Source: Gluconobacter oxydans
GTDB taxonomy: Bacteria > Pseudomonadota > Alphaproteobacteria > Acetobacterales > Acetobacteraceae
Direction of reading: 5' to 3'
DNA length: 64,000 nt
NCBI RefSeq assembly: GCF_006539685.1
Contig: NZ_BJNM01000003.1
Coordinates: 62,001 to 126,000, forward strand
How positions within the stretch are numbered: the first letter of the stretch is position 1; the number at the start of each line of letters is the position of its first letter. A program made the translations under genes and the position numbers. Shown piece by piece: positions 26,945 through 32,849 of this stretch. A model generated the notes under the pieces. The model worked only from the letters and a program-made list of their open reading frames with translations, had not been told where the DNA came from and made no database searches.

Positions 26945-27490
26945 ATGGCCTCGCAGCCAGCCTGGCTGAAGGCAGCCACCATCATTGTCGGCACCTTCAT
27001 TCTCGAAGACGCGGCCACGGTGCTTTCCGCCATCGCCGCCCGCGCCGGAGAAGTCAGCATTCCGCTGGCGCTCGGGGCCCTGTATTTCGGGGTAGCAGTC
27101 GGGGATATGGGCCTGTATGGCCTCGGTGCTGCCGGAGCCCGCTGGCCTTACCTCAAGCGGTTCCTGACCGTTCCCAAACGCGAACGTACACAGGACTGGT
27201 TCAGCACGAACGTCATCCGCGTCGTGGCCATTTCCCGCTTCGTGCCCGGCGCCAGGCTGCCGCTCTATACGGCCTGCGGTTTCTTCCGCGCGCCGTTCCT
27301 TCCCTTTGCCATGACCGCAGTTCTGGCTACGCTGGTCTGGACGACGTGTCTTTTCCTGCTTGCCATGAGAGTCGGGGGCTGGCTGCTCGCCCATCAGGGG
27401 GGCTGGCGCTGGGCCGGGCTGGCAGGGTTCGTCCTGTGTATCGTTGTCGTCGGGCGCCTGATCGCCCGTCTCCAGACCGTGAGCCAGTAA
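26945..27490 (+). CDS. DedA/VTT-family membrane protein
   Basis: Small integral membrane protein (about 181 residues, four to five hydrophobic helices). FILEDAATVLSAIAAR, GDMGLYGLGAAG and RFVPGARLPLYTACGF match the DedA (SNARE-associated/VTT) pattern: an acidic N-terminal motif and the (F/Y)xxxR-x-x-PG-x-R signature. Recent work assigns some DedA proteins to undecaprenyl-phosphate or phospholipid translocation; whether this one does is inference. ATG 26945 is chosen; GTG 26924 in frame is an alternative. Five bases separate it from the ATP-grasp gene, so they are almost certainly co-expressed. Confidence 0.82.
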   Translation: MASQPAWLKAATIIVGTFILEDAATVLSAIAARAGEVSIPLALGALYFGVAVGDMGLYGLGAAGARWPYLKRFLTVPKRERTQDWFSTNVIRVVAISRFVPGARLPLYTACGFFRAPFLPFAMTAVLATLVWTTCLFLLAMRVGGWLLAHQGGWRWAGLAGFVLCIVVVGRLIARLQTVSQ

Positions 27491-27495
27491 CAGCA

Positions 27496-28560
27496 ATGTC
27501 CAAGTCAGAAGCCGACCAGAACCCCCTCTCCCTTTTCGAATTCTGGCCTGGATCCATCTTCTACACCCCCATCGTCCTGTACTGGATCGCCATGGGGATC
27601 AAATACCGCGACCTCAGCATCTCGACCGCCGCCAATCCGCGTATCGAAACGGGCGGCCTGTGCGGCGAGAGCAAGTCCTCCATCCTCGACATGGGCGGCT
27701 CCACGGCCCAGTCCTATATCGCGCCTTATGTCGTCTTCCGCAGCGGCAAGGGTTCCGTTCGCCGCGCACTCGACGCCATGGAGCGCAAAGGCCTGTCCTT
27801 CCCCGTCGTCATCAAGCCCGATATCGGCTGCAATGGCACGGGTGTGAAGCTCGTCCATAACCACGAACAGCTCGAAGCCGTCCTGCCGCAGTTCCCTGAT
27901 GACGTGGACATGCTGGCACAGGACCTCATCACCTATCCTGTCGAGGCTGGGCTGTTCTATATCCGCCATCCCGACGAGCCACGTGGCCGCATCACCTCGA
28001 TCACCTACAAGGAAGCGCCGGTCCTGACAGGCGATGGCGTGTCCACAATCGAGGAACTGATCCTGCGCGATCCCCGCATGAGCCTGGTGCCGCAGATCTA
28101 TCTGCCCCGTCTGGCCGGACGGGAGAAGAACGTCCTCGCCAAGGGTGAGGAAATGCCGCTCGTCTTCGCGGGCAACCACTGCAAGGGTTCCGTCTTCCGC
28201 GATGGTCGAGCCGATACGACGGACGCGCTGACCGCACGCCTCGACGCCATCATGAAGGACATCCCGGATTTCCATTTCGGGCGCGTGGACGTGAAAGCCG
28301 CTTCCATTGAGGATCTGCGCCGGGGCGAGAACTTCCGGATCATCGAGATCAACGGTGTCGGCTCCGAAGCGACCCATATCTGGGACCGTGGCACGACGCT
28401 GTGGGAAGCCTATCGCGCCCAGTTCTCACATTACCGTCAGACGTTCCTGATTGGTGCTGCAAACAGGGCACGTGGCTGGAAGACGTCGGGCGCGTTCTCG
28501 ATGCTGCATTCCTGGCGCAAGCAGCGCCGACTGCTGGCGTCCTATCCGCTGAACGACTGA
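27496..28560 (+). CDS. Uncharacterised ATP-grasp protein with membrane-proximal N-terminal region
   Basis: 354 residues. The ATP-grasp core has FPVVIKPDIGCNGTG (glycine-rich loop) at about residues 105-119, the ATP-binding VDMLAQDLI segment, and a metal-binding FRIIEINGVGSE near the C-terminus. The fold resembles D-Ala-D-Ala ligase or carboxylate-amine ligases, but the first 60 residues (FEFWPGSIFYTPIVLYW, then STAANPRIETGGLCGESK) are not those of Ddl and include one hydrophobic helix. The substrate is unknown. It follows dedA by five bases, suggesting a membrane-linked ligase acting on a lipid-associated or envelope substrate. Confidence 0.8.
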   Translation: MSKSEADQNPLSLFEFWPGSIFYTPIVLYWIAMGIKYRDLSISTAANPRIETGGLCGESKSSILDMGGSTAQSYIAPYVVFRSGKGSVRRALDAMERKGLSFPVVIKPDIGCNGTGVKLVHNHEQLEAVLPQFPDDVDMLAQDLITYPVEAGLFYIRHPDEPRGRITSITYKEAPVLTGDGVSTIEELILRDPRMSLVPQIYLPRLAGREKNVLAKGEEMPLVFAGNHCKGSVFRDGRADTTDALTARLDAIMKDIPDFHFGRVDVKAASIEDLRRGENFRIIEINGVGSEATHIWDRGTTLWEAYRAQFSHYRQTFLIGAANRARGWKTSGAFSMLHSWRKQRRLLASYPLND

Positions 28561-30110: not shown

Positions 30111-31652
30111 ATGCCAGCTTCGATACAATCTCCTCCCGATCTCCCCGGACCAGGCCGCCGAAAGACCCTTGAACAGGTCCTTTTCGAGAACGACACGAAC
30201 GGCCTCAAGCGCAGCCTGACGGCGACGCAGCTGATCATCCTCGGGGTCGGGTCCACGATCGGCGCTGGTATCTACGTCATGACGGGTACGGCTGCTGCCG
30301 AATATGCCGGCCCCTCGGTCCTGATTTCCTTCGTCATCGCGGCCCTTGCCTGCCTGTTCACGGCCTTTTCGTACGGCGAACTTTCCTCGACCCTTCCCGT
30401 ATCGGGCTCGGCCTATTCCTACGCCTATATCTCGATGGGCGAGAAAGCGGCCTGGATGGTCGGCTGGCTCCTGCTTCTGGAATACGGCATCTCATGCTCT
30501 GCCGTCGCGGCGGGCCTGTCGGGTTATGCAAGCTCCCTGCTGGGCGTCACCGGCTTTCACATGCCATCCGCGCTGACCCACGCAACGCTCCAGCCCGTAC
30601 CCGGCACGGCCGGAGCACAGATCAGCGCCGACTGGCGGTTCGATCTGATTGGCTTTACCGCGACGCTTCTGGTGACGGCCCTGCTGGTCCGGGGCGTCGA
30701 GGAATCCGCCCGCATCAACACCATGATCGTGGCGCTTAAAGTCGGGGTACTGTTCGTGTTCGTGGCACTGGGCATCGGGGCCGTCAATCCGGCGAACTGG
30801 CATCCGTTCATTCCCGCCAGTGAAGGCGGGTTCCATTACGGGGTGCGTGGCATTTTCCGTGCCGCCTCGGTCATTTTCTTCGCTTATGTCGGGTTCGAGG
30901 CCGTCTCCACAGCCTCAGCCGAAGCGCGCAACCCTACACGCGATGTCCCGATCGGTATTATCGGCAGCCTGCTGATCTGCACCATCGTCTACATGATCGT
31001 CGCCACTGTCCTGCTCGGTATCGTGCCTTATCGTGAACTGGATGTGCCCGATCCGCTCGCCATTGCCGTGAAGATCATGCACACGCCCTGGCTGTCCCTG
31101 CTAGTCAATGTCGGCGCAACGATCGGCCTGTGCTCGGTTCTGATGGGCCTGATGTATGCCCAGTCCCGTGTTCTGCTCACCATCAGCCGTGATGGTCTGA
31201 TCCCGCAGATCTTCAGCGTCATCCATCCGAAATTCCGCACGCCGTGGATCGGGACCATCGTTCTCGGCTTCGTGGTCGCACTCATCACCGCAACTCTGCC
31301 GATCGACATCATCAGCGATCTCGTTTCCATCGGGACGGCTGCGGCGTTCGGGATTGTCTGCTTCACGGTCATCTGGCAGCGCAACACGCGACCTGACATC
31401 GTGCGTCCCTTCAGCGTCCCGCTGGGCGGTATCCGCATCCGTGGGATCTGGATCGGCACGACCCCCGCGCTGGGCATCCTGTTCTGCCTGGTCATGACCA
31501 TTCCGCTGGTCTCGGACATGGTTCACGCCGTTACCAGCGGCAATCCGGTCCCGCTGATCCTTCTGGTGACCTATCTGGCGCTGGGCATTGCAACTTACGC
31601 CTTCTACGGACGGCGCCATTCAAAAATGCGCCCCGAGCCTCCCTTAGTCTGA
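30111..31652 (+). CDS. APC-family amino acid permease (cationic amino acid transporter type)
   Basis: Inner-membrane proton-linked or exchange amino acid transporter, 513 residues with about 12-13 hydrophobic helices. The APC signature IILGVGSTIGAGIYVMTG is at about residues 44-60, and FFAYVGFEAVSTASAEARNP matches helix 6 and its following loop in CAT-type permeases. Substrate cannot be read from sequence. ATG 30111 is preferred to the upstream TTG 30102. The 3' end overlaps the convergent mscS-like gene by nine bases. Confidence 0.9.
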   Translation: MPASIQSPPDLPGPGRRKTLEQVLFENDTNGLKRSLTATQLIILGVGSTIGAGIYVMTGTAAAEYAGPSVLISFVIAALACLFTAFSYGELSSTLPVSGSAYSYAYISMGEKAAWMVGWLLLLEYGISCSAVAAGLSGYASSLLGVTGFHMPSALTHATLQPVPGTAGAQISADWRFDLIGFTATLLVTALLVRGVEESARINTMIVALKVGVLFVFVALGIGAVNPANWHPFIPASEGGFHYGVRGIFRAASVIFFAYVGFEAVSTASAEARNPTRDVPIGIIGSLLICTIVYMIVATVLLGIVPYRELDVPDPLAIAVKIMHTPWLSLLVNVGATIGLCSVLMGLMYAQSRVLLTISRDGLIPQIFSVIHPKFRTPWIGTIVLGFVVALITATLPIDIISDLVSIGTAAAFGIVCFTVIWQRNTRPDIVRPFSVPLGGIRIRGIWIGTTPALGILFCLVMTIPLVSDMVHAVTSGNPVPLILLVTYLALGIATYAFYGRRHSKMRPEPPLV

Positions 31653-32849
31653 CGACATCGACGAACTGCCGGGCCCCATACCCGGGCCCATATAGCTTCC
31701 CGGCGGCGGCCGGCTGATCGGGGGCGCCATCCGTTCCCAGGGCTCCTGCATACCGGCTGCGGGGGGCATCATGGAGAAACGCGAACGGGGCAGCGCCTCG
31801 GGGCATTCATCGCGGATGCGGGCGATGATCTTCTCGCGAATATCGCACCGCAGATCCCAGCTCTGAAGCGCCGTACGCGCACTGGCGATGATGCGGATGG
31901 ACATGACATGCGCGTCGCAATCCGCCACCTGCACGTCGAACACGCGCCCGTCCCAGAGCGGACATCCCCGCACGATCTCGTTCAGCATCTCGCGGATCTT
32001 GTCCATCGGCGCCTGATAATCGACCCACAGGAACACAACACCGATGATGGCCGCGGAATTATGCGTCCAGTTCTCGAACTGGTTTTCCAGAAAATACGAG
32101 ATCGGCACGATATGCCGTCGCCAGTCCCAGACCCGCAGCACCACATAGGTCGCGTTGATTTCCTCAACCCAGCACCAGTCGCCATTGATAATGATCAGGT
32201 CTTCCATCCGGATCGGCTGTGTCAGCGCGATCTGCACACCCGCGATCAGGTTCGTCAGCAGCCCGCGCGCTGACAGACCCACGATCAGGGACGCCGCCCC
32301 CGCAGACGCGAACAGGGACAGCCCGTACTGCTTGACGGAGGGAAACAGCATGAGCGCCGAGGCCACGGTCACGATGCCCACCAGGATTTCCGTCAACCGC
32401 CGCAGGACGCGGATCTGCGTCTGGTGCGAGCGGATCATGATGTCGTCGGTCTCTTCACGCGCCGCCAGGCGGTTAAGATAGACCTCCGTCATGATCCGGA
32501 AAACCATGATCGCCGAGAACCCGAAAGTCAGGATCAGCAGGAACAGAAAGAAGAGCTGAAGATCGTCTTCCTGCGCCGCCGTAAATCCCGTTGCAGCCGG
32601 CAACGCGGACAGCATGGCCAGGAGCGCCACCATCAGCCGCGTGGGCCTGCGCAGGGAGGAGACGATGCGCCGGATCAGCGCAGCCTTGCGCGATCCCGGG
32701 ATCCGCAGAAGCTGCGTCGTCACCAGATTGCCGCAATAGAACGCCAGCACCCCCACAACCACCAGCATCAGCACCGAAACGACGGAAGCAGGCAGCCAGG
32801 TGAAATAGGACCGTATGGCAAACAGGGTGCTGACGAAATGTTGCGTCAC
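31644..32849 (-). CDS. MscS-family mechanosensitive channel
   Basis: Inner-membrane tension-gated channel, 401 residues. Several hydrophobic helices in the first 180 residues lead to the pore-lining segment (SLFASAGAASLIVGLSAR), then GLLTNLIAGVQIAL and the MscS beta domain (TQPIRMEDLIII, NATYVVLRVWDWRR, PISYFLENQFENWT). The C-terminal cytoplasmic alpha/beta part is followed by a Pro/Gly/Ser/Met-rich tail. It carries two or three more N-terminal helices than E. coli MscS. Convergent overlap with the permease is nine bases. A GGAGT-like site precedes the ATG. Confidence 0.9.
   Translation of the reverse strand: MTQHFVSTLFAIRSYFTWLPASVVSVLMLVVVGVLAFYCGNLVTTQLLRIPGSRKAALIRRIVSSLRRPTRLMVALLAMLSALPAATGFTAAQEDDLQLFFLFLLILTFGFSAIMVFRIMTEVYLNRLAAREETDDIMIRSHQTQIRVLRRLTEILVGIVTVASALMLFPSVKQYGLSLFASAGAASLIVGLSARGLLTNLIAGVQIALTQPIRMEDLIIINGDWCWVEEINATYVVLRVWDWRRHIVPISYFLENQFENWTHNSAAIIGVVFLWVDYQAPMDKIREMLNEIVRGCPLWDGRVFDVQVADCDAHVMSIRIIASARTALQSWDLRCDIREKIIARIRDECPEALPRSRFSMMPPAAGMQEPWERMAPPISRPPPGSYMGPGMGPGSSSMSSD

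What the first reader, a model, noticed from the sequence alone, without database searches (positions are those of the whole stretch)
26945..28560. DedA membrane protein paired with an uncharacterised ATP-grasp ligase
The two genes are five bases apart. The ATP-grasp protein has a full ligase core but an unusual first 60 residues including one hydrophobic segment and a GGLCGESK region not found in Ddl. Some DedA proteins translocate undecaprenyl-P or phospholipids. Neighbours are peptidoglycan enzymes, mlaD and uppP. A plausible model: a ligase that attaches an amino acid or similar carboxylate to a membrane-linked acceptor that DedA moves. This is the best candidate here for an undescribed enzymatic system.
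Basis: inference. Interest (0 to 1): 0.5.

Follow-up and report, generated by a model that had tools for sequence, protein, structure and literature searches.

The report
Ligase and flippase for ornithine lipids
Two neighbouring genes of an acetic acid bacterium, one for a membrane protein that probably moves lipids and one for an ATP-driven joining enzyme, keep company in many bacteria and in some sit among the genes for ornithine lipids, so they probably cap an amino-acid membrane lipid (perhaps with taurine) and move it across the membrane.

Summary
The pair is real: a DedA/VTT membrane protein (stop ends 27490) and, five bases on, a 354-aa ATP-grasp protein (27496-28560) that reaches no Pfam or NCBIfam cut-off. 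The linkage is not local. In three genome draws (phylum, class, class of a gammaproteobacterium) 43 genomes carry the ATP-grasp family; the VTT gene is next upstream in 31 and fused in 4. Fusions lie in three places of the tree. The substrate clue lies outside the window: all 10 carriers outside the window's class in the phylum draw have an OlsF-type ornithine-lipid synthase in the same cluster; a Variovorax plasmid has AG-OlsB and genome G1108 AG-OlsB-OlsA. An OlsB/OlsF gene is found in 42 of the 43 carriers, against 229 of 398 phylum genomes. Gluconobacter cerinus, reported to make the ornithine-taurine lipid cerilipin, carries the pair (L049). Best reading: the ligase amidates the carboxylate of ornithine lipid, in Gluconobacter probably with taurine, and DedA moves the product. 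The lipid link is well supported; taurine and flipping are inferred.

The parts
26945..27490 (+). DedA/VTT membrane protein; ATG 26945 likely, GTG 26924 possible
   Evidence: Pfam VTT_dom 36.0 bits vs 33.9; NCBIfam UptA models only 27.0 and 22.9 bits vs 250 and 300; conserved E28, D29, R105, R111, numbered from GTG 26924
27491..27495 (.). five-base spacer between VTT stop and ATP-grasp start
   Evidence: sequence
27496..28560 (+). ATP-grasp carboxylate-amine ligase of an unnamed family (AG), 354 aa
   Evidence: family alignment, model, PDB matches
27535..27603 (+). residues 14-36 of AG: moderately hydrophobic N-terminal segment
   Evidence: hydropathy, predicted helix 23-36
27652..27678 (+). 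residues 53-61 of AG, the GGLCGESK motif and its flank
   Evidence: G54, G57, E58, K60 invariant in A1
28282..28356 (+). residues 263-287 of AG, with R263, D265, E284, N286 (expected ATP/Mg residues)
   Evidence: invariant in A1; the profile aligns here with cyanophycin synthetases; assignment of roles is recalled ATP-grasp knowledge

Best explanation
The two genes form one lipid-modification unit. The ATP-grasp protein (AG) sits at the inner face of the cytoplasmic membrane through its N-terminal helix, activates the free alpha-carboxylate of an OlsBA- or OlsF-made amino-acid lipid (ornithine lipid) as an acyl phosphate with ATP, and joins it to a small amine. In Gluconobacter the amine is most likely taurine, giving tauro-ornithine lipid (cerilipin). 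The VTT protein then moves the capped, more acidic lipid to the outer leaflet. Shown here: conserved pairing and fusion of AG with VTT; an ATP-grasp fold with the expected ATP/Mg residues; a gene-cluster link to OlsF/OlsB/OlsA outside the window's class; an OlsB gene in this genome. Inferred: lipid carboxylate as substrate, taurine as amine, flipping by VTT, and that lineages without an ols cluster use the same substrate.
For: Pairing: 35 of 43 carrier genomes of three draws have VTT next upstream (31) or fused (4); a fifth fusion is in Azospirillum sp. B510 (WP_247894514.1). VTT and AG distances correlate, r 0.81 over 35 loci, 0 of 1000 permutations as high (shared species history adds to this). 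Substrate: OlsF within the cluster in 10 of 10 carriers outside the window's class in the phylum draw; in L161 it ends 37 bases before the frame of a VTT-AG fusion; OlsB 4 bases after the AG frame in a Variovorax plasmid (L037) and, followed by OlsA, in G1108 (L224). The NCBIfam models that score best against them are ornithine-lipid models: OlsF 428 bits over the whole length in L038, OlsB 175 and 179 bits in L037 and L224, 277 bits for the OlsB of this genome, all below the curated cut-offs. OlsB/OlsF present in 14 of 14 phylum-draw carriers (other genomes 215 of 384; Fisher 3.7e-4, not corrected for kinship) and 28 of 29 further carriers. Mechanism: closest solved relatives are cyanophycin synthetases, ATP-grasp amide ligases (Foldseek E 6e-11, VIA Z 15.9; profile E 3e-11). 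Amine: ornithine-taurine lipid is reported from G. cerinus (passages of PMC4484230, PMC6669457), whose genome carries the pair (L049). Transport precedent: DedA proteins moving undecaprenyl phosphate and, PetA of B. subtilis, phosphatidylethanolamine (passages of PMC12893004).
Against: No ols gene was found in the AG neighbourhood of the Alphaproteobacteria examined, the window included; there the link rests on co-occurrence, and in the window's family OlsB is almost universal (145 of 150), so it tests nothing. G513 (93% complete) has an unbroken-looking VTT-AG pair but no OlsB by two searches; its congener G576 has only a weak PF13444 match. Cysteine dioxygenase, one route to taurine, was found in 1 of 28 carriers tested and not in G000, so taurine would have to be imported or made otherwise. 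VTT is not next to AG in 8 of 43 draw carriers, among them the AG-OlsB-OlsA case and one AG-OlsF case. A Komagataeibacter-plasmid type sits with a methyltransferase and a haem-oxygenase-like protein instead. Paracoccus denitrificans is reported to contain ornithine lipid (a title in the reference list of PMC11631085) and carries AG; no taurine form is known to me.
Confidence: 0.5

Rival explanations
1. Same machine, other amine: AG caps ornithine lipid (or a related OlsB/OlsF product) with another amine or amino acid in some or all lineages, and taurine is not the partner of the window's enzyme.
For: Taurine rests on a species-level match with published chemistry only; cysteine dioxygenase is absent from 27 of 28 carriers tested; the AG family is diverse (36-69% identity to the query in A1).
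Against: Ornithine-taurine is the only capped ornithine lipid named for Gluconobacter in the passages seen.
Confidence: 0.25
2. AG acts before acylation: it joins free ornithine to a small amine, and OlsB or OlsF acylates the product.
For: Same gene clusters; nearest solved relatives join amino acids to peptide-like chains.
Against: It does not explain the VTT partner or fusions or the conserved membrane-surface N-terminus; unmodified ornithine lipid is also reported from G. cerinus (title cited in PMC12493201).
Confidence: 0.1
3. One reading: the ligase modifies undecaprenyl phosphate or a peptidoglycan precursor that the DedA protein recycles.
For: The VTT protein's weak NCBIfam matches are UptA (27.0 and 22.9 bits); local neighbours are envelope genes.
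Against: UptA cut-offs are 250 and 300 bits; D-Ala-D-Ala ligase models give 12.5-12.6 bits against cut-offs of 245.65 and 489; outside the family the recurring neighbours annotated are ornithine-lipid, hydrolase and methyltransferase genes.
Confidence: 0.08
4. A soluble or secreted small-molecule pathway; VTT serves export and the ols genes are incidental.
For: Some family members sit with methyltransferase and haem-oxygenase-like genes on plasmids; alpha/beta hydrolase upstream in 10 loci.
Against: OlsB or OlsF joins AG in several separate parts of the tree and in different layouts.
Confidence: 0.07

Closest known systems
Cyanophycin synthetase (CphA) ATP-grasp G domain
   Same: Best fold and profile match; shared GDGxST..LI stretch and ATP/Mg region; amide-bond chemistry
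   Different: AG is one 354-aa domain; it lies far below the cyanophycin synthetase cut-off in 11 of 11 members (best E 2e-7; P0001 17.8 bits vs 850); N-terminal membrane-surface helix instead of the usual N-domain
DedA/VTT lipid transporters (UptA, PetA)
   Same: VTT domain over cut-off, conserved acidic pair and arginines (roles recalled)
   Different: Not UptA by NCBIfam; partner gene and presumed cargo differ
Ornithine-lipid synthesis (OlsBA, OlsF) and its known modifications
   Same: Genomic partner; [quoted passage not shown]
   Different: No ATP-grasp or DedA component found described in 10 library searches
Vibrio cholerae VCA0649-VCA0646 putative operon
   Same: Ends with an OlsF shown to make ornithine lipid (PMC12186959, sections 7 and 9 read); the Vibrio-type clusters here also end in a run of small genes and OlsF
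   Different: Described as four genes; whether they match the small genes here was not tested

Membership tests
ATP-grasp carboxylate-amine ligases | ATP-grasp fold | tested here: met
   model pLDDT 83.6; Foldseek E 6e-11, VIA Z 15.9
ATP-grasp carboxylate-amine ligases | ATP/Mg residues | tested here: met
   K107, D265, E284, N286 invariant in 11 relatives; aligned region shared with cyanophycin synthetases; roles recalled
ATP-grasp carboxylate-amine ligases | ATP-dependent amide bond formation | not testable with these tools
   needs assay
D-alanine-D-alanine ligase | NCBIfam score over cut-off | tested here: not met
   12.6 bits vs 245.65 and 12.5 vs 489
Cyanophycin synthetase | full-length model score | tested here: not met
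   17.8 bits vs 850 for P0001
DedA/VTT family | VTT domain over gathering score | tested here: met
   36.0 vs 33.9
DedA/VTT family | fold match to a solved member | tested here: inconclusive
   no PDB match with E <= 0.001
UptA undecaprenyl phosphate transporter | NCBIfam equivalog score | tested here: not met
   27.0 vs 250; 22.9 vs 300
Ornithine-lipid modification enzymes | ornithine-lipid synthase in the genome | tested here: met
   OlsB in G000; 42 of 43 draw carriers; not met in G513
Ornithine-lipid modification enzymes | acts on ornithine lipid | not testable with these tools
   needs lipid analysis of mutants or an enzyme assay

The most novel reading that the evidence does not exclude
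A conserved cap-and-flip module for amino-acid lipids: an ATP-grasp ligase of an unnamed family converts zwitterionic ornithine lipid into a capped form (tauro-ornithine lipid in Gluconobacter, other caps elsewhere), and a dedicated DedA protein, in some species fused to it, moves the product. This would give a gene to cerilipin synthesis and an amino-acid lipid cargo to a DedA protein.
Probability: 0.4. Interest if true: 0.85.

Novelty: new variant of a known kind. Interest (0 to 1): 0.7.

Why it matters
Ornithine lipids are widespread phosphorus-free membrane lipids. A 2025 paper lists 'taurine transfer' among their modifications and cites the 1976 chemistry (passages of PMC12493201); we found no gene named for it in the passages and searches made. 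If the reading holds, a 1976 lipid gets its enzyme, a DedA subgroup gets a cargo, and the fusions offer a single polypeptide in which synthesis and translocation can be studied together.

Tried and rejected
Peptidoglycan or undecaprenyl-phosphate substrate: rejected as the main reading, because those neighbours are local to the family while the recurring partners outside it are ornithine-lipid genes.

Taurine supply by cysteine dioxygenase: 1 of 28 carriers, no support. Other taurine routes were not searched.

Strict co-occurrence inside Acetobacteraceae: uninformative, OlsB is in 145 of 150.

PDB fold search with the VTT model gave nothing at E <= 0.001; no viral-library search was run. Occurrence of AG outside Pseudomonadota could not be tested.

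Papers: read in named sections: PMC12186959. Passages only: PMC11631085, PMC12493201, PMC4484230, PMC6669457, PMC10191378, PMC12893004. The rest were seen in search listings only. A 1978 report of enzymatic tauro-ornithine lipid synthesis is recalled, not found in the searches.

Dropped before counts: of 53 non-redundant AG proteins from genome contigs 48 went into A2 with P0001, of 44 VTT proteins 38 into A3. One search counts 161 loci that repeat some genomes, so the report uses the 43 draw genomes instead. VTT calls rest on a profile made here from the window protein's matches.

Full report
What is in the window. A VTT/DedA frame ends at 27490 and an ATP-grasp frame (AG) runs from 27496 to 28560, five bases later. 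The VTT protein reaches 36.0 bits against Pfam's 33.9. AG reaches no cut-off: its best Pfam match is ATP-grasp_4 at E 0.002 and its best NCBIfam match RimK at 22.5 bits against 143.4. The window is part of a 2.7-Mb genome (G000) whose close relatives are Gluconobacter. VTT_dom matches four places in G000.

A real family with a sharp edge. With an 11-member profile (A1), 14 of 398 phylum genomes match at E 2.8e-121 or better and the next match is 2.6e-12. At E <= 1e-30 it is in 62 of 150 genomes of the family, 28 of 337 of the class and 5 of 321 of a gammaproteobacterial genome's class. Phylum, class and gamma draws together give 43 different carriers. 28 plasmid records of seven genera also carry it.

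Linkage to VTT. Among the 43 carriers VTT is next upstream on the same strand in 31 and fused in 4; it was not found beside AG in G424, G598, G627, G641, G887, G970, G1000 and G1108 (flanks up to 8 kb, some contigs shorter). By draw this is 13 of 14 (phylum), 25 of 28 (class) and 1 of 5 (gamma); three genomes are shared by phylum and class, one by phylum and gamma. A fifth fusion is annotated in Azospirillum sp. B510 as one 590-aa VTT protein. In a Salinivibrio plasmid the two genes overlap by 4 bases; in Paracoccus denitrificans VTT lies nearby on the other strand. In a tree of 85 AG rows the fused label needs three changes and the not-VTT label four (changes can be gains or losses, and rows in no group were not counted). 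VTT and AG distances correlate at r 0.81 (35 loci). In G012, a relative in the same genus, VTT, AG and the next gene MlaD are all in broken frames while the flanking SLT, UppP and permease frames are whole, which fits loss of the unit but could also be sequencing error.

Linkage to ornithine-lipid genes. Neighbour clustering and Pfam showed a 600-aa Acyltransf_2 + Acetyltransf_5 protein downstream of AG in gammaproteobacterial loci. That architecture is OlsF; PMC11631085 states the Pfam 19576 N-terminus of OlsF. It is in the AG cluster of G105, G137, G197, G221, G267, G291, G327, G365, G424 and G068, all ten phylum-draw carriers outside the window's class, and in a Vibrio plasmid (L038). In G424 it follows AG directly without VTT; in G068 it precedes a VTT-AG fusion. 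Two further layouts: AG-OlsB in a Variovorax plasmid and AG-OlsB-OlsA in G1108. NCBIfam's best models are ornithine-specific: OlsF 428 bits (cut-off 620) in L038 against 138 for glycine GlsB; OlsB 175 and 179 bits in L037 and L224 (cut-offs 320 and 350). The nine VTT-bearing OlsF rows are one clade; L161, L224 and L037 lie in other parts of the tree, so the association is not a single inherited neighbourhood.

Co-occurrence. PF13444 is in 229 of 398 phylum genomes (E <= 1e-10) and in 14 of 14 carriers there (Fisher 3.7e-4 against 215 of 384, uncorrected for kinship). It is in 28 of 29 further carriers, the miss being 57% complete, and in 19 of 19 that are at least 90% complete. In the family draw 61 of 62 carriers have it at E <= 0.001; G513 (93% complete) lacks it in two searches and G576 has only E 7.7e-6, although G513 has the pair in one piece each. 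That is the clearest result against the reading. The G000 OlsB is a 318-aa protein, 276.5 bits to the OlsB model (cut-off 350).

Structure and chemistry. The AG model (pLDDT 83.6) is closest to cyanophycin synthetase (Foldseek E 6.1e-11; VIA Z 15.9, rmsd 5.4, 266 aligned), followed closely by LysX/ArgX, carbamoyl-phosphate synthetase, glutathione synthetase and Ddl, so the fold gives the chemistry (carboxylate plus amine, ATP), not the substrate. The profile search agrees (CphA2, E 3.3e-11), and the alignment shares the GDGxST..LI region and the ATP/Mg end. The N-terminal 60 residues are family-specific, with an interfacial helix and the GESK motif. The VTT model has no PDB match at E <= 0.001.

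Why taurine. Ornithine-taurine lipid (cerilipin) was described from Gluconobacter cerinus in 1976 (passages; also named), and the G. cerinus NBRC 3267 genome carries VTT and AG next to each other (L049). A ligase of this class is what an amide between a lipid carboxylate and taurine would need (inference). Cysteine dioxygenase was not found in G000 and in only 1 of 28 carriers, so supply is open, and other lineages may use other amines.

What remains open. Lineages without VTT beside AG (8 of 43), the Komagataeibacter plasmid type with methyltransferase and haem-oxygenase-like neighbours, and the small DinB-like, NRDE/TANGO2 and YHS neighbours of the Vibrio type are not explained. Novelty is judged from 10 searches of an open-licence library only, which misses most subscription papers.

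Noticed in passing
L285 (G012:C1:26000-36500): VTT, AG and the adjacent MlaD frame are all broken in one genome of the same genus while SLT, UppP and permease frames are whole; loss of the segment or sequencing error.
   Followed up: partly
L036 and L228-L236 (L229, L230, L233 and others): Second AG type without VTT nearby; in L036, L229 and L230 a methyltransferase and an iron-containing haem-oxygenase-like protein stand beside it (Pfam run on L229 only).
   Followed up: partly
L035, L038, L150-L154, L156, L157, L159, L160, L224-L226: A 187-aa DinB-like protein (weak Pfam match) near AG in 14 gamma-type loci, often with NRDE/TANGO2 and YHS-domain genes; role unknown.
   Followed up: partly
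L162, L203, L205, L207-L209, L211, L212, L223, L034: An alpha/beta hydrolase near the VTT-AG pair in 10 alphaproteobacterial loci, mostly just upstream.
   Followed up: no
G513, G576 (L286, L237): VTT-AG pair in a genus with no clear OlsB; worth checking for another amino-acid lipid synthase.
   Followed up: partly
window 31644-32849: MscS-type mechanosensitive channel gene near the amino acid permease.
   Followed up: no
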